From positions 1 through 64,000 of the forward strand of contig JAIVFH010000079.1 of NCBI GenBank assembly GCA_025765595.1: a stretch of DNA of 64,000 bases. Direction: 5' to 3'. Positions 7,950-21,288 of the stretch are shown here, piece after piece. The stretch comes from Obelidium mucronatum. Lineage: Eukaryota; Chytridiomycota; Chytridiomycetes; Chytridiales; Chytriomycetaceae. The position numbers and the translations under genes were made by a program. Position 1 is the stretch's first letter, and each line of letters starts with the position of its first letter. The notes beneath the pieces were generated by a model. It was not told the origin of the DNA and made no database searches. It worked only from the letters and a program-made list of their open reading frames with translations.

Positions 7950-8660
7950 GGGTTAAACATTGAGTAGATATATGAATGCATACACAAAAAACAAAGAGTT
8001 TGAATACAAACCCAAAATGAACCAGGAACCAGAAAAAAAAGGCCAGAAAACAGAGTACACTAGAACCCAAAGGAGAAGGAAAAAGGAAGGAAAAGAGGAA
8101 ACTAGAAGAACTGCAAGACTTTGAAGACAGAGTGTTCAAGGAACTTAGAAAAGGCAAAATGACACTGGACCAAATAAGCCAAGAGATAGCGAAAGAGAGA
8201 CAAAGACTGGGAATACCTGACGAGTTTGAGGAAAAGGATCCTTCACGCCCAAGCCACAGGAAATCAGCCACAGGAACAAGCCCAACGCAAGGGGAGCCTC
8301 AGGGAACAAACATCTGCCAACAGACTGGGGAGGGAACGGGGGAGGAGGCGAGGCTGAAGGGGGGCTCTCTTTTTCTCCACAGGGGTTTTTTAATGAGGCG
8401 GCCCCTGGAAGGTTTCTAAATGTGGAAGATCCTGGTGAGCTGGGGGATGGGAGGGGGGAGACGTTATGGGTGGTGGAAGTAGACGGGAGGTCTACAAGGC
8501 GGGTTGGGGTGCTAGCTGTGCCTACAAGCCAGAATGTGGAGTCAGGTCTTATCATACTGCTTCAGGAATGGGGGAGGAATGGTAGTTCAGCACAGTGTTT
8601 ATTACAAAGTACATCCACATCAAACAAAAAAAAAACCCCTTTCTGTAGGTATAACAACGT
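7950..8660 (+). other. Remnant region with a Lys/Glu-rich open frame
   Basis: A plus-strand frame at about 8050-8419 reads KLEELQDFEDRVFKELRKGK, then MTLDQISQEIAKERQRLGIP, and ends in low-complexity sequence. The helical, charged part looks like a fragment of a larger protein, possibly a retroelement. No start, partner exon or recognisable domain was found. I cannot assign a function. Confidence 0.3.
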
Positions 8661-9325
8661 AAGAGCATCTCCAACAGGGGATTTCAAAATACAAAATGTG
8701 ACAATATTTGAAAACACTTTTGAAAATGTTTGTCACAGCGGAGTTTCAAAATACATTTTGTTTTGAAAAAATCTATTTTCACATTTCAAAAAAAGAAATT
8801 TTGAAGCTCCCGAAACACCAGTTTCAAATGGCCTACTACTCCCAAAAACGCGTATGCCACCCAAAACTCCAAGAACTGAAAACTACTCCGTTGATGAGGA
8901 CATAGCCATTGCAAAGGCTTACAGTGCTGCAAGTCAAGATGCAGTTGTAGGCACAAGTCAAACCAGTTCCCAATGGGACGAGAAGCTCTTTGCAGCATTC
9001 AGAGTACAAATCCCTGGCACTGCTAGATCAAATCCAAATCCTTTAAGGCAGAGATACAACAAGTTAAACGCGAATGCAAGTAAATATGTGGGAGTACATC
9101 AACGTAATCGAGAGGGTCCAGATACTCCATACTGTCCGAATACCAATTTTAGGAGGTGACCTCTAAGAGTTTTACCTGAATGCACAGTGACTTACATCAG
9201 AATGGTGCAGTTTCAGTTATTTACCGGTGTGTTCGTTGAGTTCAAAATACACTTTCAAATTTTATTTTGAAGCAAAAAAATTGAAAACTGTATTTTCCCG
9301 CTGGAGAACTACCCCAATCTGGTTT
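8661..9325 (+). mobile_element. Small element with imperfect inverted ends and a Myb/SANT-like ORF
   Basis: The left end GAGCATCTCCAACAGGGGAT (from 8663) matches the right end read in reverse (TTCTCCAGCGGGAAAAT, about 9308-9292) over the core CTCCARCRGGGRA. Flanks on both sides repeat TTTCAAAATACA / TTTTGAAGC-type words. Between them the frame 8854-9159 encodes 101 residues with a SANT/Myb-like helix pattern (SVDEDIAIAKAYSAASQDA, then WDEKLFAAFRVQ, then LRQRYNKLNANASKYVG). This resembles the DNA-binding halves of transposons. No transposase was found, so it is probably non-autonomous. Exact ends are uncertain. Confidence 0.5.
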
Positions 9326-9720
9326 TCAATACTGTTTGACTCATTTGCCTTCTTCAGTTCATTATTCTTCAAGATTTAAAGAGCTCAGAGTTCCACATTT
9401 CTTTGGAATTTGCAACCTGACTTGCAAAGGAACAAAGTGCCTGAGGGTACGTCTCTAGCAATCACTCAGCAATTGGGTGGTGATGAATAAAGTGACATAA
9501 TAATCTCCAGACACGTGCAGTTGCCAAGGTGTGACTGTCCACTGAAACGCAGATTCCTGGAAATTTCATGTTTAGTGATTCTGTTCTCTTTTGTTGTTTG
9601 TGATGTTGTTATAAGGGTGGCGTCAGAAGTCAAGCAGACATTGTGGTTTTCGTGACTTTTGTTTCTGGACATACAATTTTTATTTGAAATCACAGCTAGC
9701 CTCTGCAAAAAAAAAAAAAA
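9326..9720. other. Intergenic / MutY 5' flank
   Basis: No gene was seen. A run of 14 A lies immediately before the MutY start codon (about 9707-9720). Confidence 0.35.
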
Positions 9721-11174
9721 ATGCACAATCTGTCCTACCACTCCTTCGAGTCTGAAGACGAAGTTACCCAGCTCCAAAAATCACTCATGACTTGGTTTCA
9801 CTCCGAGAAGCGGGACTTGCCTTGGCGTAAGCCATTTGAAGCCAATCCAGACCCCATTGCCCAAGGACAACGCGCCTACGAAGTATGGGTTTCTGAGATT
9901 ATGAGTCAACAAACTAGAATTTCCACAGTGATTGAGTATTACAACAAGTGGATGACAATGTGGCCCACGATGGAGGCCCTGTCAAAAGCTTCGTTGGATG
10001 ACATACATAAAGTGTGGAGTGGACTCGGGTATTATTCAAGAGGAACTAGAATGTTGGAAGCAGCGAAAATCGTGATGGATAACTACAAGGGTCGATTGCC
10101 GGACGATCCTGTCGTCTTGGAAAAAAACATTCCAGGAGTTGGGAGGTATACGGCTGGTGCAATTGCGTCCCAGGCATACAATAAACCGGCACCCCTTGTG
10201 GATGGAAACGTGATTCGAGTATTATCAAGGAGTAGGGCGTTGGGGTTGGATCCAAAGTCAAAACGTGCTGTTGAATTGCATTGGGCTTTGGCGGAACGAG
10301 TTTTATTGAAGAGTGATCCTGGGGATTTTAATCAAGCAATGATGGAGTTGGGAGCTCGAGTTTGTACTCCTCAGAATCCGTCTTGCGGGACTTGTCCCAT
10401 TCAAGCTCAGTGTCGAGCTTATTCTGAGGTGTTTTCTTCGTTTCCTCTCTTTCTCGTTGCTCGGTATCTCACGACGAAACAAAAAAAACACAGTCCACAA
10501 ATGCGTTAAAGGGGGGCCCTTTCAACAAGTCTAAAAAACGCGTCCTGGAAAACGTGAATCCCTCGGCGCAATGCGAGTTATGTTTGCCCCTCGGCGACGA
10601 AACAGACATTGAAGACTGCTCCTCCTTCATGGTTACAAGATACCCCGCAGCTATAAAAAAGAAGGCGCCTGAGGAAAAAGAGGTCCTCGTTGTGATTGTT
10701 GAAATTGAATCCACCTCTGATTCATTGCCTTCAAAATACCTTGTCCACAAGAGACCAGAAAAAGGCCTTCTCGCGAACCTTTGGGATTTCCCCCATATTC
10801 CCTTGTCGGAATCACTGTCGATGGAAACGCTGCGGTCGGAAGACATACTGTTCAAGCAATTGCCGTTAGGTGGTCCGCATCCCATCAAGAAGCGAAAGAG
10901 TCTCGGATCAGTTCTGCATCTATTTTCGCATATTCGACTAACAATGAATGTGGAATGGGTTGTTATAGCTGGGGCTGTTGATGGGTTTAGTGTTGGTGGA
11001 GGGGAATGGTGGGCGGAAGCGGAACTGGATACGGGAGCTGTTCCTGTGACTTTGAAGAAGGCATTCAAGTTATTGGTGGATAGCAAAAGCAACGTTTCTG
11101 GTAGACAACGCAAGAAGGCCAAGGTTGAAAAATCACAGCCAACAATCTCCAACTTTTTCAAACCGAAAGAATAA
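9721..11174 (+). CDS. mutY: Adenine DNA glycosylase (MutY/MUTYH)
   Basis: Two exons (9721-10428 and 10530-11174) encode about 450 residues. The protein removes adenine mispaired with 8-oxoguanine in base-excision repair. Visible landmarks: the EIMSQQTRISTV helix with the catalytic Glu; the helix-hairpin-helix IPGVGRYTAGAIAS; the catalytic Asp in PLVDGNVIRVLSR; the 4Fe-4S ligands C-x6-C-x2-C-x5-C (from CTPQNPSCGTCP); SAQCELC at the domain junction; and a C-terminal NUDIX-like 8-oxoG recognition domain (LLANLWDFP, FSHIRL). The last residues, QPTISNFFKPKE, match the PCNA-interacting peptide QxxIxxFF, placed as in some eukaryotic replication-coupled repair enzymes. The intron uses GTGTTT..AAG, and exon 2 reads on in phase. 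Confidence 0.95.
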
Positions 11175-12247: not shown

Positions 12248-14352
12248 TTAACGGCCATTGAGCCAGTACGTGTTCATTGTTCCTTTCCCCTTGATGTTCA
12301 TCACATCAGGGCCTTCAATCTTGAATCCTTTTCCGTTAATGAGCTTGTAGGTGTTTTCAGAAATGTGAATTCTCATTGGCTTGGAAGTTGACTCCATTCT
12401 ATTCGTGACATTATTCGATTTAAGATAGTTATAAAAAAACATCAAGTGAAGATTGAAACTCACCGAGACGCCGTATTGACAGCATCCCCAACAATACACC
12501 AGTGTGGATTACTGTCTCCCAGAATACCCGCCGTGATGGGTCCAGAGTTCAACCCAATACGAGTGACAATCTCTTCATCTTTAATTGTTCTAAAGTCTTG
12601 AACCATGCGAATAACATCAATTGCAAAGTTGGCGGCTCTCTCGGCATGATCTGGAATACGGTCTGGAGCTCCAATGACACCAAGGAACGCGTCGCCAATG
12701 GTTTCCACCTTGTACATTCCCCAACGCTTGCAAATTACATCGTATTCAATCCATAACTTGTTTAAGTTTGCCAGCATGTCCTTTGTGGAGTTTTTGTTGG
12801 ACAATGCAACAAAGTTGGTAATGTCAGAGAAAAAGACGGTGACTGAAGAGTATTCTTCAGCACCAGAAGCTTTTCCGGCCTTCATTGCCTCAACGATACT
12901 GTAATTGTGAGAAGTTTAGTGAGAGAAAGAGAAAAAAAAAATAGCTATATGAGTTGTTTTTTAAAAAAAAAAATAAAAAAAAAGTATAAAAAATAAAAAA
13001 TAAAAAAAAAAAATGTAGAATAAAAAAAGTACCTTGGTGGCATCAGCTTCTCCAAAAGCTTATCAGCCTGTGCCATTTGCGCCTCAATCTCATGAGCAAC
13101 CGACTCCATCTTCTTGGCCTTGGAGTTCATTGATTCCTCAAGCGTCGCATTCACAAGAATAAAAGTCAAAAACACTTTTGCAAAAATATCGCTGACACAG
13201 AACATGACTTCTCCTTGCTCATAAGTGACAATCTGGGCGCGTTGCAAATGCCAAGTGACTGGAAACGCGGACCATGCCAAGAAAGTGATGGCTCTTGCAG
13301 CCGCCAGGGATGGAACGTCGAGCTTGCAACTAGTCTTTCCTTCAATAGCGCGAGTGTACATTGTCACAATACCAATGATTGTGTAAAAAAAGAAGATTAC
13401 GGCACTGCAGGCCATCCATTCAGAGTAGGGCTGTTTCAAGAAACACGCAAAGAACCCAAAGGTTATCAAAACGTAATCGTAGGTGGCGGTTTGATCGGCC
13501 ATCTGGTGGTTGTCTGTGATTTCGGCAATGAGATAAATCAAGATTGGGCAAGTTGCAATCCATTCAAAGAAGCGGGCTGGATCGACAGGGTATCCGACAT
13601 AGTCTTTGAAAGATGGTGATGTACGAGTAAACTGGAGAATATAGGTTGCCATTGCAATAAAGTTGACAATGCACAACACCTAAATATTACCAGGAAGAAA
13701 GTTTTTTAAAAAAAAATGGAATATCATGAAAACGAATTTGAAAAAAAAAAGGAGAAATAGAAAATTAAAAAAAATAAAATAAAATTAAAAAAAAATTAAA
13801 AAAAGTACAAAAATATGCGAAATAAAAAAATAAAATAAAAAGTGTGTAAAAGAAAAAACAAAAGAAACCGGTACATACTTTTCCTAGGTCTCTTTTTTCA
13901 TTGTTTTGGGCATTGGCGTACGCGATATAAGAGTAAATAACCGCAATGGCAAAACAACCAGCAGTGTACGCGTAAAACTCGTCAGCATATCCTCGATCAA
14001 ATGCCGATAGCGCGTATCCTGTCGCCAGCAAGTACCAACCGAGTCCGGTCATGACCGACCAAGCGATGAAGTTGCGGAAAACATAGTAGACCGCTCCCGA
14101 GTTGTCTTTCTCGGCCTTGGCAGCTTCGAGCTTTTCTTTCCAGTTGGTTTCTGCACAAGTTTTTTTTAAAGTTGTAAGTTGGTGTTTGGAAATATTGACA
14201 AGAATCGTACTTCCTGATTTTGGAACAGCGCGTACAATAACTTGGTGAAAAATGGCACCGTGATGGCAACCACGGCAACGCTTTGTTCCTGTTTGGACTT
14301 GAAAGACAGAGCAGTTGCAGTTGTCACACGTGCCGCGTTGAATCTCGTCCAT
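12248..14352 (-). CDS. RGC: Rhodopsin-guanylyl cyclase, paralogue A
   Basis: Five exons (14352-14211, 14150-13879, 13679-13033, 12898-12464, 12398-12248) give 548 residues. Order: an N-terminal CxxC..CxxC zinc-ribbon-like segment (CDNCNCS, then KRCRGCHH), an extra helix TM0, seven rhodopsin helices, a coiled coil (ESMNSKAKKMESVAHEIE) and a class III cyclase domain. Helix C has RFFEWIATCP, with Glu at the bacteriorhodopsin Asp85 position and Cys at the Thr90 position. Helix G has SDIFAKVF, with Asp212-like and retinal Lys residues. Cyclase residues are complete: FFSDITNF and GDAFLG metal Asp, VET Glu plus HWC Cys for guanine, and DAVNTASR with catalytic Asn and Arg. Light should drive GTP to cGMP conversion, alone or with NeoR. 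I cannot tell whether this is published RGC1 or RGC2. Confidence 0.95.
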
Positions 14353-14586
14353 TGCTTTTTCCTCTTTTTTTTATTTTTTTATTTTTTTGTTTGCTGTAAA
14401 TCCGTGTTCAAGATGCAAATCTTTTGTTCAAGAGGAAGCAAGTTCCGATTTTTACAAGAATTGAAAAAGTGTCACTTCTTTTGTATGATGGTTTTAATAC
14501 TGCAATTCAATTTTTTTTTTTTGTTTGTATTCTTGTATGATGAAATGAAGGATTTGTCAAAAATTTACGACATCATCAAAAGTGTT

Positions 14587-16476
14587 TTAACCACGACCGT
14601 TAATCCAATATGTGTTCATTGTTCCTTTACCCTTGATGTTCATCACGTCTGGGCCTTCAAGTTTGAATCCTTTTCCATTAATGAGCTTATAAGTGTTTTC
14701 AGAAATGTGAATTTTCATTGGCTTGGAAGTTGACTCCATTCTATTCGTGAGATTATTCGATTTAAGATATTTATAAAAAAACATCAAGTGAAGATTTAAA
14801 CTCACCGAGACGCCGTATTGACGGCATCCCCAACAATACACCAGTGTGGGTTACTGTCTCCCAGAATACCCGCCGTGATGGGTCCAGAGTTCAACCCAAT
14901 ACGAGTGACAATCTCTTCATCTTTAATTGTTCTAAAGTCTTGAACCATGCGAATAACATCGATTGCAAAGTTGGCGGCTCTTTCGGCATGGTCTGGAATA
15001 CGGTCTGGAGCTCCAATGACACCAAGAAACGCGTCGCCAATGGTTTCCACCTTGTACATTCCCCAACGCTTGCAAATTACATCGTATTCGACCCAGAGTT
15101 TGTTCAAATTTGCCAGCATATCCTTGGTTGTATTGTTGCTTGAGAGCTGAACAAAGTTGGTGATGTCAGAGAAGAAGACTGTAACTGATGAGTATTCTTC
15201 GGCACCAGAAGCCTTTCCTGCCTTCATTGCCTCGACGATACTATTCGGGGGAAAGGGTTGATTTAGTTTCAGTTAAAAAGTCAGGGGTGGAAAAAAAGAA
15301 CCTTGGTGGCATAAGCTTCTCCAAGAGTTTATCAGCTTGAGCCATTTGATTTTCAATTTCCTGTGCCACAGCTTCCATCTTCTTGGCCTTGGAGTTCATT
15401 GATTCCTCAAGAGTCGCATTCACGAGGATAAATGTGAGAAAGACCTTGGCGAAAATATCATTGATGCAAAAGATAAGCTCTCCTTGCTCGTATGTAACAA
15501 TTTGTGCTCTTTGGATGTACCAAGTGATAGTGAAGGAGTTCCAAGCCAGGAATGTAATAACTTTGGCAACCTTGAGAGAGGCAACATCAAGCTTGCAACC
15601 GGTTTTACCATCGATGGCTTTTGAGTACATCTCCATGAGACCCGTAATGGTGTAATAAAAGAAGATTGTCGAGCAACAGGCCATCCATTCGGAGTAGGGT
15701 TGCTTCAAGAAGCACGCGATAAACCCAAGAACAATAAGAGTATAATCATAAGACGCAGTGAGATCGGCCATGTGGTGGTTGTCGGTAATTTCTGCAATGA
15801 GGTAGATCAAAATTGGACATGTAGCAAGCCATTCGAAAAAGCGAGCTGGATCAACTGGGTAGCCCACATAGTCAGAGAACGTAGGAGTAGTGCGAGTCCA
15901 TTGCATCAAGTATGATGACATGGCAATGAAGTTGACGATGCAGAGCACCTGTTCAAGAAGATGTGTTTTTAAAAGGAAGTGATGAATTGGAGGAGCCCCC
16001 CACCTTTCCAAGATCACGTTTCTCATTGTTCTGAGCATTAGCATATGCAATATAGGAGTAAATGACAGCGATTCCAAAGCATGCGGCAGTATATGCGTAA
16101 AACTCGTCAGCATAGCCTCGATCGAATCGCGGTGCAACGTAGCCAGTGGTCAGCAAATACCAGCCAATGCCAGTAAGCCCAGACCAAACAAGAAAGTTAC
16201 GGAATACGTAATACACTGCACCAGAATTGTCTTTCTCGGCCATAGCAGCTTGCAACTTGTCTTTCCAGTTGGTTTCTGGTATTTTTCCCTTTTCAGTTGA
16301 AGTTTTAATTGTTAAATGATAGGTAACCCACTGCCTGAAGTCTTTGGGGCAACGCGAACAACAACTTGGTGGAATATAGCGCCATGGTTACAGCCTCGAC
16401 AGCGCCTTGTACCAGTCTGCACTTGGTAGACGGAGCAGTTGCAGTTGTCGCAGTTTCCACGTTGGATGTCGTCCAT
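14587..16476 (-). CDS. RGC: Rhodopsin-guanylyl cyclase, paralogue B
   Basis: Five exons (16476-16332, 16275-16004, 15948-15302, 15240-14806, 14740-14587) give 550 residues. Intron positions and phases are identical to paralogue A, 234 bp downstream. The start is the ATG of MDDIQRG; an upstream in-frame TTG is not needed. It has the same architecture: zinc ribbon CDNCNCS..RRCRGCNH, TM0 plus seven helices, coiled coil, cyclase. Helix C is RFFEWLATCP and helix G is NDIFAKVF. In helix F the Pro186-equivalent is Thr (AWNSFTITW, against AWSAFPVTW in A), so colour tuning probably differs. The cyclase active site is complete (FFSDITNF, VETIGDAFLG, HWCIVGDAVNTASR). It shares a divergent promoter with NeoR. 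Confidence 0.95.
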
Positions 16477-16691
16477 CAGTTTGGATTTGTGGGACAATTA
16501 AAAAAAATCAGTGAAAACAAACGCCCCTTTGTTTCCTCCCTGAATCCGCGAATCGCATTCTTTCGGGCAATTCTTTTTTCGCGTGATTTCAGATTTCATC
16601 AAGATTTTTCTCAAACCCAAAAAATCCTTTGTTTGTGGTCTTTGTATTGTTCCAAATATTCTATTCCACAAAATTCTTTCAAACACCGATA
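16477..16691. promoter_or_regulatory. 215-bp divergent promoter between RGC-B and NeoR
   Basis: The start codons of RGC-B (minus, 16476) and NeoR (plus, 16692) are only 215 bp apart, so both 5' UTRs and promoters must lie here. The sequence is AT-rich with a TCGCGTGATTTCAG-like patch (about 16578-16592) and repeated TTTGTTTG/CCTTTG words. No clear TATA box was identified. The arrangement suggests co-regulation of the two heterodimer partners. This is inferred from geometry only. Confidence 0.6.
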
Positions 16692-18642
16692 ATGTCAGCA
16701 CTCTCCAAGACTAGTATATATCCTATTACTTTGGTCTCATGGCTTTTCTAACCGTACTACTAATACACAATGTAATAGAGGACGCAGCTGCAGCAGCTAG
16801 CTCAAAAGACCCCCACAATCAAGCGAAACCAATGGGTTTTGTCTGGCTGAACTTTGCCATGTGGGCTGGCGCGGTCGCTTATACTGTTAATCAAAGACTC
16901 TTTGGAGGATACCGCACAAAAGCTTTCGACCGCGGAAATTCTGATTACATTTACAAGGGACAAGCCTTTGTTTTCTTTGTGGCAATTTGTTTCGCTGGCT
17001 TGGGCTACATTGGAACAAAGAGCAAAGCCAAGAGAAGCATGACTTTTGTGCTCATGATGACATGTGGGGTTGTTACTGTTAGTTGGTTCCTGTTGTACCT
17101 CCGTGCAGGAGTCACTCTCTTTGACAGAGCCGGAAACCCAGTCGATGTTATCAGATACTTGGAATGGGCTCATGACGAAGCTAACTTGTTTGTATTTTGT
17201 TTTTTATACTTTTTTTTACTTGGTGAGTTGAATGTAAAATTTGTAAAAACAGGGCTTATTTCATTGGACTCTTGACGTCAGCTGACCAATGGACCATTGG
17301 TCGCGCTATTGTTAACTCCCATCTCTGTATTTTGTTTGGTTTCCTGGGAGCCATCGCTCGACACCCGTTTGATGAAGTGTTTGCCACAATTTCCATGGTG
17401 GCATATCTTGCATGTCTTCAAGATGTTCTTTCCATGTTTCAGAAGGCAATCGATGGAGAAGTGGACAACAAGGTAGACACTTGGACTTTGCGCAGAACCC
17501 GTGATGCTACTGTGTTTGCCTGGTCTTACATCACTCTTGCTTGGTACCTTGTTAGAGCGTAAGTTGCCTCGGCATTTTTTGATAACCTCAATTTACGAAA
17601 GAGCTTCTATTACTCAGCGATATTTGGTCCTTCGAAAAGGGAGAACTTCATATTGCTGCCGGAGAGTTCGTCGCCAAGATTGTTGTTATGCTCATCTTTG
17701 TCAACAACTCAGTTGAAGAGGCGCAATCCGACACTGTCTTCCAGATGGAGAGCCTCACCTCCTCGTTGGATGAGCAAATGGCCGCTTCTGACAAGCTTTT
17801 GGAGAAGATGATTCCTGCCGGGTACACATTGTTTTTGTGAGAAAGCTCTTCGAGAATCCTCATTCTTTGTCTATAGGGTTTTGGACCAACTCAAGAGCGG
17901 AAAGGCCACTGGTGCCGAAGAATACAACTGTGTTACTGTGTTCTTCTCTGATATTGCCAACTTCACTCCATTGTCCCAAAGAACTTCGGTAATACTTCTG
18001 CTACTTTGACACCACAACCTTGTTGTTCAAACTGAAGACTCTTTTCCTAGACCAAAGATATGCTTGCCTCCCTCAACAACATGTGGATCGAATACGACAA
18101 GATCTCCAAGAAGTATGGCATGTACAAGGTAGAGACTATTGGAGATGCCTTCTTGGGTGTTGTTGGTGCACCAGAACGCGTTTCCGACCACGCCGACCGC
18201 GCCGCCGAATTCTCTATTGGTTCGTATCACAACTTGAGACGGACATAAACTTTAACATTCATTTGAATAGATATTATCGAAATGATCAAGGGCTTCCGTC
18301 TGGTCACTGGCGAACCCATTCAGATCCGTGCAGGATTGAACTCTGGACCAGTTACCGCTGGTATTCTTGGAGAATCTAATCCCCACTGGTGCATTGTAGG
18401 AGACACTGTCACAATTGCGTCCAAGATGGAGGCTACTTCTAAGCACATGAAGATCCATATCGCAGAAAGCACGTACAATCTGTTGAAAAACAGTGGAAGA
18501 TTTAGAACTTCAGAAGGAGAACCTGTTAACATCAAGGTACTAATAGTTATTTTTTTTCTTTTCAAAAAGCCACTATTTTAACACCTACCTAATTTAAAAG
18601 GGCAATAATATCAATACCTACTTTATTGAGGGACGTGCTTGA
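16692..18642 (+). CDS. NeoR: NeoR: near-infrared rhodopsin-guanylyl cyclase subunit
   Basis: Eight exons (16692-16713, 16779-17187, 17253-17558, 17618-17822, 17878-17988, 18051-18219, 18271-18536, 18601-18642) give 509 residues. The first intron contains a consensus branch site (TACTAAT). Helix C reads IRYLEWAHDE, giving Glu136 and Asp140. Helix G reads AAGEFVAKIV, giving Glu262 and retinal Lys266. This is the Glu-Asp-Glu counterion triad, with the numbering I recall for R. globosum NeoR. It has TM0 plus seven helices, a coiled coil and a cyclase domain with metal Asp339 and Asp383, and guanine-binding Glu379 and Cys448. The canonical N-x3-R is replaced by Thr455 and Lys459 (DTVTIASK), so the homodimer should be inactive. 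Unlike the RGCs it lacks the N-terminal zinc ribbon. Confidence 0.96.
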
Positions 18643-18940
18643 TCATTTAATTTCATTTTCATTTTTGGCAACTTTGATCCTTTGTCTCGTTTTCGAATAA
18701 ATTCAAAATCAATCAATCCCAACAGGGTATTTTCAACGACTAACCCAAGGCGACACGATTTTGGAATGGCCCAGTGTTTCAATAGGGCGGTTGCATCTTA
18801 TTTAAAGAGATCTACGTGTTGGTAACAGAGCATGGGTGTTTTCAGTAAGAACTTTCTTTCAAACAATGCACGAAAATCTGATTACTAATAATATTACCCC
18901 AAGGTCTTTGAGCCAGAGGTACCGATCGATCTGGTGTTTA

Positions 18941-19445
18941 CCTGCCCTTGGCTATGTCGGCACAAAGAGTCCAGCTAAACGAGACATCATTATAAGAGCG
19001 GGTTTATGCATTACCAACATTTTTCAATATACACGCGCCGTACCAGCTTATTTTGACAAAGTCGGATTTTCTAGGATGGCCATGTTCCAAAACGCGATTG
19101 ATGGCGCGGTAGGCCAAAATGCCAATGTTTGGACATTGCGCAGATCAAGAGACGTTACAGTATTTGCTTGGATATATATCGCGTTGCACTTCCATGCAGG
19201 ATGGAACTCTGGACCAGTTACGGCTGGCATTCTTGGAGAATCTAATCCCCACTGATGTATTGTAGGAGACACTGTCACAATTGCGTCCAAGATGAAGCTA
19301 TTCTTCTAAACACATGAAGATCCATATCGCAAAAAGCACATATAATCCATTACAGAGCAGCGCAGGATTTAGATTTTCTGAAGCATCTTCCAATGATGGA
19401 CTCTATTGAGGGAGACGCATTTGATCATTTAATTTCAATATCGTG
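18941..19445 (+). pseudogene. Decayed, internally deleted second NeoR-like gene
   Basis: Downstream of NeoR, fragments of a paralogue follow in order: LGYVGTKSPAKR (NeoR has LGYIGTKSKAKR), YTRAVPAYFDKVGF (closer to the RGC loop before helix C), AMFQNAIDGAVGQNANVW then TLRRSRDVTVFAWIYIAL, then a jump to NSGPVTAGILGESNPH, a stop codon, and CIVGDTVTIASKMK. Helix C, helix G and most of the cyclase domain are missing. The end matches NeoR's stop and 3' UTR (TGATCATTTAATTTCA at about 19423 and 18640). It keeps the non-canonical TVTIASK signature, so it derives from a NeoR-type gene rather than an RGC. Confidence 0.85.
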
Positions 19446-19741
19446 CTTTTTCTTTTGTTTGAAATAAAGTCATTAAAAGTTTATTAATTTTAGTCAGCGA
19501 GTAAAACAACACCTATCGCCAAATCTTTACCAATTTGACTTTATTAAATTAAGAGAAAACCAATAAAAAACGAGCATGTCATGGATATTTTGTATTGTTG
19601 TGGAGAATGCAGGTTGAAAACAAAAGGCGAACTAGAACTGAAACTGCAAGATCAGTCCAAAAAACAAACTATATCCAAAAAAGGAGAGCGGTAGATGAGG
19701 AAAGAATGACATTGAATACAATTGGGTCCGCAAGGGCTAAT

Positions 19742-20549
<808 letters not shown>

Positions 20550-21288
20550 TATTATTTGTTTTTTGAGGGTTTTTTCTTGCGAAGTTCACGATATCTGGGA
20601 ACATTGAGTTGTTAGTCGCCAACATAGATTTCCCACGAGAAAGTAGGAGCTATTTCAGGTTGTCTCATTTTATGAGCCACGGCCCTTTAGCTGAGCGGCT
20701 TATCGATGCTATTGTGATGATATCTGTCCCATCCTTTTTTGTGCTTCCACACTCGCCCAATCTCCAATAAAACATAACGCGGCCTATGAACTGCTGACAG
20801 TTTGAGCGTCCGATTTGGCCTGGCTGGTTTTGTGCGTGGAGATCACTACTCACAGGTGTACTTGAGAGTAAAACGCGTCACAGAAGTACTCTTTGTGGAT
20901 AGGTTATTGAGCAGTAAGGTGCGTCAAGACTCAAGCGGCGATAGATGATAGGTAACACCCGCGTACGATTGGAAACTTGGGAAGAAAAAAGTAGAGGGAC
21001 GCGACGAGGGACAATGGAAAGGGAAATCTGCACTGAGTTATTTTTTTTCTTTCTTTTTTTTTTTTTGGCTTCCAGAAGCAACTGATTCTTGCGATTGGTC
21101 AATGTTTCCTTCCCAAAGCTTTCCCCTCCAGGAGTTGTGTTTTGTGTTTTTTTAATTGTGGGGGGGATCAGACTTTTTTTTTTCTGACCAATGAGATTTC
21201 GCCAACAGTCTCAAAATCCACCAAATTCTATACACCCCCTTTTTTTTTAACAAAACAGAAACAGAAAAAAAAAAGGATTTGAAATTAA
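20550..21288. other. Divergent intergenic region (Rsr1 / disulfide isomerase)
   Basis: No coding or RNA gene was recognised. It contains poly-T and poly-A runs near 21040-21070 and 21170-21265 that precede the isomerase start codon. Confidence 0.35.

What the first reader, a model, noticed from the sequence alone, without database searches (positions are those of the whole stretch)
12248..18642. Complete NeoR plus two rhodopsin-guanylyl cyclase cluster (heterodimeric photoreceptor system)
Three rhodopsin-cyclase genes sit together: two tandem on the minus strand and one divergent on the plus strand. The plus-strand protein, spliced by hand, has Glu136, Asp140, Glu262 and retinal Lys266. As I recall, these are exactly the counterion residues reported for R. 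globosum NeoR, which absorbs near 690 nm. The family knowledge (NeoR works only as a heterodimer with RGC1 or RGC2) is established. The genomic clustering is read directly here.
Basis: partly seen in the sequence, partly recalled or inferred. Interest (0 to 1): 0.95.

Follow-up and report, generated by a model that had tools for sequence, protein, structure and literature searches.

The report
Fungal NeoR and rhodopsin-cyclase gene cluster
This stretch of the genome of the chytrid fungus Obelidium mucronatum carries a gene for a near-infrared-type light sensor (NeoR) beside two partner rhodopsin-cyclase genes, a published gene arrangement predicted to make the messenger cGMP in light; the partner genes also carry likely gene-conversion patches in which one half of the protein was overwritten while the other half diverged.

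Summary
Two tandem minus-strand rhodopsin-guanylyl cyclases (RGC_A 12248-14352, RGC_B 14587-16476) face a plus-strand eight-exon NeoR1 (16692-18642). NeoR1 carries 17 of the 18 residues that I took by number from R. globosum papers, including E136, D140, E262 and K266. The window is Obelidium mucronatum. The layout is published for R. globosum and called common in chytrids, and an O. mucronatum NeoR has been studied: a further member of a known kind.

'Complete' is wrong. The genome also holds a head-to-head NeoR2/RGC_C pair in a collinear duplicated block on contig C25, a third NeoR type with counterions E-G-E on contigs C74 and C278, and a NeoR pseudogene at 18935-19440.

The likely new part is mosaic evolution: RGC_A and RGC_B are saturated at silent sites in the opsin but nearly identical in a cyclase patch and its intron, whereas RGC_B and RGC_C are nearly identical in the opsin core. 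The 215-bp divergent intergenic region holds a 28-bp block found only at the two loci.

The parts
12248..14352 (-). RGC_A, rhodopsin-guanylyl cyclase, 548 aa; exons 14352-14211, 14150-13879, 13679-13033, 12898-12464, 12398-12248
   Evidence: Identical to listed protein P0040 of O. mucronatum; D379, E419, D423, C488 at the published RgRGC1 numbers; both Pfam domains
14587..16476 (-). RGC_B, rhodopsin-guanylyl cyclase, 550 aa; exons 16476-16332, 16275-16004, 15948-15302, 15240-14806, 14740-14587
   Evidence: Identical to listed protein P0037; same four cyclase residues one place later; 87% identical to R. globosum P0045
16477..16691 (.). 215-bp divergent intergenic region, candidate shared promoter of RGC_B and NeoR1; 28-bp block at 16542-16569
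   Evidence: 76% identical to the C25 intergenic region, shuffle mean 50%; longest exact block 38 bp against 6-12 bp in introns; 28-bp block only at the two loci, control 0. Promoter role inferred
16692..18642 (+). NeoR1, eight exons, 509 aa; E136, D140, E262, K266
   Evidence: 17 of 18 published RgNeoR residues
12278..12738 (-). Likely gene-conversion tract in RGC_A (codons 408-539, with intron 4); core codons 448-512
   Evidence: 27 A=B, 1 B=C, 2 A=C sites in codons 448-512; 2 of 60 codons differ silently, 0 of 20000 permutations; intron 4 95% identical
14620..15080 (-). Matching conversion tract in RGC_B
15466..15945 (-). Likely second conversion tract: opsin core of RGC_B shared with RGC_C of contig C25 (codons about 141-300)
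   Evidence: ps 0.07-0.20 in windows starting at codons 141-281; 3 of 60 codons in 237-300, 2 of 20000 permutations; 60 B=C against 1 A=B sites in codons 241-300
18935..19440 (+). NeoR pseudogene: pieces of opsin and cyclase with stops and deletions, ending in a NeoR1-like tail
   Evidence: Opsin pieces closest to NeoR3-type P0005, cyclase piece closest to NeoR1; tail seen

Best explanation
The locus is the NeoR-RGC cluster of Obelidium mucronatum: NeoR1 and two rhodopsin-guanylyl cyclases (RGC_A, RGC_B) whose products likely pair as NeoR1/RGC heterodimers that would make cGMP in blue or green light, with NeoR1 as the predicted far-red, bistable partner. Shown here: gene structures, domains, residue identities, gene order, a duplicated pair on contig C25, and the silent-site patterns. 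Inferred from R. globosum: RGC_A or RGC_B is the light trigger and supplies the base-recognising Glu/Cys, NeoR1 supplies the metal-binding Asp339/Asp383 of the one active site, and cGMP acts on channels in the zoospore. Inferred from sequence: NeoR1 and RGC_B share the 215-bp divergent promoter while RGC_A has its own; RGC_A is the shorter-wavelength partner (Pro at the BR-P186 position, Ala at the NeoR-191 position) and RGC_B the longer-wavelength one (Thr, Ser). Gene conversion likely keeps the cyclase halves of the tandem pair alike while their opsins diverge.
For: 17 of 18 published RgNeoR residues in NeoR1, including triad, Lys266, DEAN motif and the four cyclase residues; RGC_A and RGC_B carry the four RGC1 cyclase residues; R. 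globosum RGC P0045 87% identical to RGC_B; both Pfam domains in all three; eight-helix opsin in the model of the orthologue P0001, best solved matches rhodopsin phosphodiesterase and RGC cyclase cores; same layout published for R. globosum; NeoR-type and RGC-type proteins on a contig of the same length in 8 of 14 other species or strains with a NeoR-type protein; conversion tracts.
Against: No expression, spectra or pairing were tested. In R. globosum, switching NeoR changed photocurrents in one study but had no significant effect on RGC1/NeoR activity at saturating GTP in another, so a regulatory role of the far-red half is open. H134 is Tyr here (the H134Y change in RgNeoR shifts the spectrum by less than 10 nm). 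The colour assignment rests on two positions. The ungapped-column identity of the intergenic region (0.85) lies inside the range of the introns (0.66-0.86), and 4 of 7 NeoR1/NeoR2 introns exceed the highest of 100 shuffles, so not all of its likeness need be constraint. The trees do not settle where RGC_A stands against R. globosum.
Confidence: 0.92

Rival explanations
1. The genes encode independent homodimeric rhodopsin cyclases, as in Blastocladiella, and their clustering is only a history of tandem duplication.
For: The cyclase residues needed for turnover are present in each of the three proteins, so nothing in the catalytic site demands a partner.
Against: NeoR1 has the NeoR counterion triad; NeoR and RGC-type genes recur on contigs of the same length in 8 of 14 other species or strains; R. 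globosum orthologues work only as NeoR pairs.
Confidence: 0.04
2. The A/B and B/C similarity patches are not gene conversion but local constraint on silent sites, or an assembly error in the tandem repeat.
For: The permutation tests treat codons as exchangeable and ignore codon-use differences along the gene. The tandem genes are close repeats, where assemblers can err. Direction and donor are not identified.
Against: RGC_A against RGC_C has no such tract in the same codons (ps 0.53-0.69 around codons 441-500), and intron 4 of A and B is 95% identical while the other three introns are at shuffle level; the patches are near-identical, not identical, which a collapsed assembly would not give.
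Confidence: 0.12
3. Contig C25 is not an independent second locus but the diverged homologous chromosome of a hybrid or a remnant of whole-genome duplication, so NeoR2/RGC_C are homeologues rather than an added pair.
For: Beyond the RGC-NeoR pair, a Ras-like gene, a Myb-domain gene and an unidentified gene follow in the same order on both contigs over about 29 kb of the window and 27 kb of C25.
Against: No similarity to the window was found in 7.2 kb beyond RGC_C nor in the 6.8 kb between NeoR2 and the Ras-like gene; silent divergence is high (dS about 0.5-0.6), unlike C74/C278 (about 96% identical DNA). Either way both copies are in this genome.
Confidence: 0.3

Closest known systems
Rhizoclosmatium globosum neor/rgc1/rgc2 cluster (PMC7655827, PMC8815786, PMC12264004)
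   Same: Two tandem RGC genes and a NeoR on the other strand; 17 of 18 numbered NeoR residues; RGC1 cyclase residues
   Different: Another genus of the same family. R. globosum is said to encode three RGCs; this genome has three RGC-type genes, four NeoR-type genes (two of them perhaps alleles) and a NeoR pseudogene
OmNeoR, NeoR from Obelidium mucronatum (Sugiura et al. 2022, known to me only through a passage in PMC9636224)
   Same: Same species; NeoR1 or NeoR2 is presumably that protein
   Different: The passage gives 78% identity to RgNeoR and a photoisomerisation result; which of the two gene copies was used, and its genomic setting, I could not see
Homodimeric RGC of Blastocladiella emersonii (P0066)
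   Same: Rhodopsin fused to a class III cyclase; cyclase identity 66.3-66.7% to RGC_B and RGC_A
   Different: Works as a homodimer and has a longer N-terminus according to PMC8815786; opsin identity only 34-35%

Membership tests
NeoR (NeoR1, window) | Counterion triad E136, D140, E262 and retinal Lys266 | tested here: met
   Same residues at the same numbers
NeoR (NeoR1, window) | Other residues numbered in the RgNeoR papers (134, 141-143, 191, 192, 195, 234, 237, 238) and cyclase residues D339, E379, D383, C448 | tested here: met
   13 of these 14 match; 134 is Tyr instead of His
NeoR (NeoR1, window) | Near-infrared absorption, bistability, high fluorescence | not testable with these tools
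   Needs purified protein
Heterodimeric RGC1/RGC2-type cyclases (RGC_A, RGC_B) | Rhodopsin with retinal Lys and Asp at the BR-D212 position, fused to a guanylyl cyclase with D379/E419/D423/C488 | tested here: met
Heterodimeric RGC1/RGC2-type cyclases (RGC_A, RGC_B) | Active only together with NeoR | not testable with these tools
   Shown for R. globosum; needs co-expression
NeoR/RGC gene cluster | NeoR on the strand opposite to tandem RGC genes, sharing one intergenic region | tested here: met
   215 bp between start codons
NeoR (NeoR3a/b, contigs C74 and C278, outside the window) | Full E-D-E triad | tested here: not met
   E136, G140, E262, Lys kept; NeoR-related by sequence and tree
RgRGC1 against RgRGC2 orthology | One-to-one relation of RGC_A and RGC_B to the two R. 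globosum RGCs | tested here: inconclusive
   RGC_B is closer to P0045 in the opsin (83% against 77%), but the tree is weak and no second R. globosum RGC was among the listed hits

The most novel reading that the evidence does not exclude
The RGC/NeoR loci of O. mucronatum evolve as a recombining cassette. Gene conversion overwrites the cyclase module between the tandem colour variants, so that both stay able to pair with the one NeoR, while their opsins diverge in colour; a second conversion, between contigs, spreads one opsin core. Alongside, a third NeoR lineage (NeoR3) has lost Asp140 and carries the S191A+T238A pair that shifts RgNeoR 65 nm to the blue: a NeoR that has given up far-red light but keeps its role in the cyclase.
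Probability: 0.5. Interest if true: 0.6.

Novelty: new member of a known kind. Interest (0 to 1): 0.42.

Why it matters
NeoR is the most red-shifted rhodopsin in the papers read here, and how its far-red half influences the cyclase is unsolved. One genome here offers a natural test set: two near-identical NeoRs, a NeoR3 without the third counterion, and three RGCs of two predicted colours. If the module-wise conversion is real, evolution has itself been overwriting opsin and cyclase halves separately, which shows where the natural joints of this photoreceptor lie and suggests that fit of the cyclase to its shared partner is what selection guards.

Tried and rejected
Rejected: that the window is R. 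globosum. P0045 of R. globosum is 87% identical to RGC_B, whereas the O. mucronatum proteins are identical and sit on a contig of exactly the window contig's length. Rejected: a NeoR start at 16739 in an unspliced first exon; the Glu then falls six places late, and the C25 copy and P0001 support the spliced MSAL start. Rejected: intron 2 from 17223 to 17281; it adds two residues and disagrees with P0001.

Corrected: I first took the C25 copy for a pair moved on its own. That call had not read the flanking loci L005 and L006, because their file names did not exist. Repeating it showed a Ras-like gene, a Myb-domain gene and one more block in the same order on both contigs, so the pair is part of a larger duplicated block. 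I raised the odds of the homeologue reading accordingly.

Led nowhere: no NeoR chain among the 60 shown of 76 hits in the PDB sequence search. The PNAS 2023 survey of RGC diversity is not held. The core TTTTCGCGTGATTTC occurs exactly at three places, one of them on C129, and at 15 places with up to one mismatch, against 1 for the reversed control; not followed up. The roughly 120 bases upstream of each NeoR3 printed show none of the conserved blocks by eye. NeoR1 against NeoR2 has no significant lowest window (6935 of 20000 permutations), its longest identical run is reached in 776 of 20000; RGC_A against RGC_C has no tract (3166 of 20000). The full-length models have weak cyclase parts, so I drew nothing from them about the dimer.
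Full report
What is there. The window is part of contig C79 (160,979 bases) of a 48.3-Mb assembly in 694 contigs. Two of the proteins predicted here are letter-for-letter listed proteins of Obelidium mucronatum (P0037, P0040), on a contig of exactly that length. The species is in Chytridiales, Chytriomycetaceae, the same family as Rhizoclosmatium. On the minus strand lie RGC_A (12248-14352, 548 aa) and RGC_B (14587-16476, 550 aa); on the plus strand, 215 bp away from the RGC_B start, lies NeoR1 (16692-18642, 509 aa, eight exons).

Membership. From passages and sections of PMC7655827, PMC8815786 and PMC12264004 I took 18 RgNeoR residues by number; NeoR1 matches 17, all but H134. They include the triad, Lys266, the 140-DEAN-143 motif, S191 and T238 near the ionone ring, and four cyclase residues. 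RGC_A has D379, E419, D423 and C488 at the published RGC1 numbers; RGC_B has them one place later. The R. globosum RGC P0045 has the same four numbers and is 87% identical to RGC_B. Pfam finds both domains in all three. A model of the Siphonaria orthologue P0001 has a well-predicted eight-helix opsin part and a poorly predicted cyclase part; its best solved matches are a rhodopsin phosphodiesterase and RGC cyclase cores. R. globosum NeoR and RGC2 were not among the hits shown (120 of 206, 120 of 1799), so those full alignments are missing.

What is known. The clustered layout is published for R. globosum, where transcripts of all three genes were detected, and the authors call it common in chytrids. 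There RGC1 and RGC2 work only with NeoR, and the single active site takes its base-recognising residues from RGC1 and its metal aspartates from NeoR. Far-red pre-illumination raised photocurrents in one study, but NeoR photoconversion had no significant effect on RGC1/NeoR activity at saturating GTP in another. OmNeoR of O. mucronatum is mentioned in one held paper (passage of PMC9636224); the cited study was not seen. Of 14 other species or strains with a NeoR-type protein in my table, 8 also have an RGC-type protein on a contig of the same length; the six without are Blyttiomyces JEL0837, C. cf. hyalinus JEL632, Phlyctochytrium bullatum, Podochytrium JEL0797, Rhizoclosmatium JEL0117 and Siphonaria JEL0065. 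That table holds 48 of the 143 proteins listed, and equal contig length is the only evidence that two proteins share a contig.

Not the whole set. Searching the genome with NeoR1 leads to four more NeoR-like genes or remnants. (1) NeoR2 on C25, head-to-head with RGC_C; it differs from NeoR1 at 5 of 509 residues and has the same 17 of 18. (2, 3) NeoR3a on C74 and NeoR3b on C278, intact in the exons read, 63% opsin identity to NeoR1, with E136/G140/E262 and the Lys. C278 matches C74 at 96.1% over 6.2 kb around the gene and 96.5% over 7.7 kb near its other end, so they may be alleles. (4) A wrecked NeoR at 18935-19440, behind NeoR1: its two opsin pieces match the NeoR3-type Siphonaria protein P0005 best (65% and 52% identity, against 57.5% and 39% for NeoR1 and 62.5% and 40% for NeoR3a), while its cyclase piece is closest to NeoR1 in DNA (86.6%, against 81.4% for NeoR2 and 81.6% for NeoR3).

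The NeoR3 type. NeoR3a groups with P0005 (support 92/98) beside, not inside, the Siphonaria/Obelidium NeoR1 group (81-99), so the split seems older than the two genera. NeoR3 has Ala at positions 191 and 238. In RgNeoR the double change S191A/T238A shifts absorption 65 nm to the blue and D140T 60 nm, while D140N keeps the spectrum and D140C moves it to 676 nm. NeoR3 is therefore predicted to be less red than NeoR1, more on account of 191/238 than of 140. A Rhizoclosmatium JEL0117 protein in the same branch (P0013, very long branch, N-terminus missing) has G/G/V at the triad with the Lys kept.

The duplicated block. RGC_B-NeoR1 (14587-18642) corresponds in reverse to C25 102839-98884, and the order goes on: a Ras-like gene (19663-20559 to C25 92073-91206), a Myb-domain gene (23.5-26.0 kb to 90.4-88.1 kb) and an unidentified gene (41.0-43.2 kb to 79.2-76.3 kb). 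No similarity to the window was found in the 6.8 kb between NeoR2 and its Ras-like neighbour nor in 7.2 kb beyond RGC_C; RGC_A has no counterpart on C25 in the genome search. So the second pair came with a segment of at least about 29 kb, by segmental or genome duplication or as the other parental copy of a hybrid; I cannot tell which. C25 was compared from 40.5 to 140 kb only.

Mosaic genes. Synonymous differences per site (ps, Nei-Gojobori) between RGC_A and RGC_B are 0.80 in codons 1-138 and 0.76 in exon 3, but 0.28 in exon 4 and 0.39 in exon 5, down to 0.035 in one 40-codon window. In codons 448-512 only 2 of 60 codons that keep their amino acid differ (0 of 20000 permutations), and intron 4 is 95% identical while introns 1-3 are at shuffle level. 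Between RGC_B and RGC_C the low stretch is elsewhere: ps 0.07-0.20 in windows starting at codons 141-281, 0.29-0.69 in the others, 3 of 60 codons in 237-300 (2 of 20000). Three-way sites show the switch: codons 241-300 have 60 B=C and 1 A=B; codons 448-512 have 27 A=B, 1 B=C and 2 A=C; no permutation of 20000 reaches the observed run of A=B excess, codons 408-539. RGC_A against RGC_C has no such tract. I read this as gene conversion of the cyclase half between the tandem genes and a second conversion of the opsin core between contigs; direction and age are unknown. A literature search for gene conversion with rhodopsin, guanylyl cyclase and chytrid (at least three of four terms; 19 papers, listing only) showed none whose title or abstract start deals with this; the PNAS 2023 survey could not be read.

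Colour. At the BR-P186 position, where R. globosum RGC1 (550 nm) and RGC2 (480 nm) are said to differ, RGC_A has Pro and RGC_B and RGC_C have Thr; P0045 has Ala. At the NeoR-191 position RGC_A has Ala, the others Ser. This predicts RGC_A to be the shorter-wavelength partner, from two positions only.

Shared promoter. The 215 bp between RGC_B and NeoR1 and the 207 bp between RGC_C and NeoR2 are 76% identical over all alignment columns (shuffle mean 50%), above the RGC_B/RGC_C introns (51-55%) and NeoR1/NeoR2 introns (51-69%); on ungapped columns the figure, 85%, lies inside the intron range of 66-86%. The longest exact block is 38 bp, against 6-8 bp in the NeoR introns and 7-12 bp in the RGC introns, and a 28-bp block occurs only at these two places in the genome with up to 3 mismatches, control 0. 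I expect NeoR1 and RGC_B to be the co-regulated pair. That is inference.

Downstream. The genome has RPE65-type carotenoid oxygenase matches at three places, 107 cNMP-binding matches and PDE matches on nine contigs, one of them C79 about 68 kb from NeoR1. This fits a retinal-cGMP pathway but does not prove one.

Verdict. The reading is right in kind and wrong in 'complete'. The layout and a NeoR of this species are already in print. What may be new is the duplicated block with the second pair, the NeoR3 type and pseudogene in this genome and, above all, the module-wise conversion.

Noticed in passing
G000:C25:76263-102839 against window 14587-43226: Collinear duplicated block (RGC-NeoR, Ras-like, Myb-domain and an unidentified gene) in reverse orientation; may point to a genome duplication or a hybrid genome.
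   Followed up: partly
L003 (G000:C74:110500-117500) and L004 (G000:C278:28000-34140): NeoR3a and NeoR3b, intact NeoR-type genes with G at 140 and Ala at 191 and 238, with no RGC gene beside them in the genome search.
   Followed up: partly
P0013, Rhizoclosmatium sp. JEL0117: NeoR-related protein with all three counterion positions changed (G, G, V) but the retinal Lys and the four cyclase residues kept; N-terminus missing.
   Followed up: no
Chytriomyces sp. MP71, contig of 190,912 bases (P0010, P0011, P0017, P0086, P0049, P0084): Four NeoR-type and two RGC-type proteins listed on contigs of the same length; triad variants Q-D-E and Q-T-E among them.
   Followed up: no
window 8660-9099: 440 bp 97% identical to C25 68436-68875, much closer than the duplicated block; perhaps a mobile or recently copied element.
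   Followed up: no
window 9700-11174: Neighbouring gene with HhH-GPD, EndIII iron-sulfur and NUDIX domains in two pieces, as in MutY-type glycosylases (the name is recalled).
   Followed up: no
window 16576-16590: Core TTTTCGCGTGATTTC of the intergenic region; resembles fungal cell-cycle boxes (recalled). Three exact copies in the genome, one on C129.
   Followed up: no
G000:C79:86352-87099, outside the window: PDEase_I domain gene on the same contig, about 68 kb from NeoR1.
   Followed up: no
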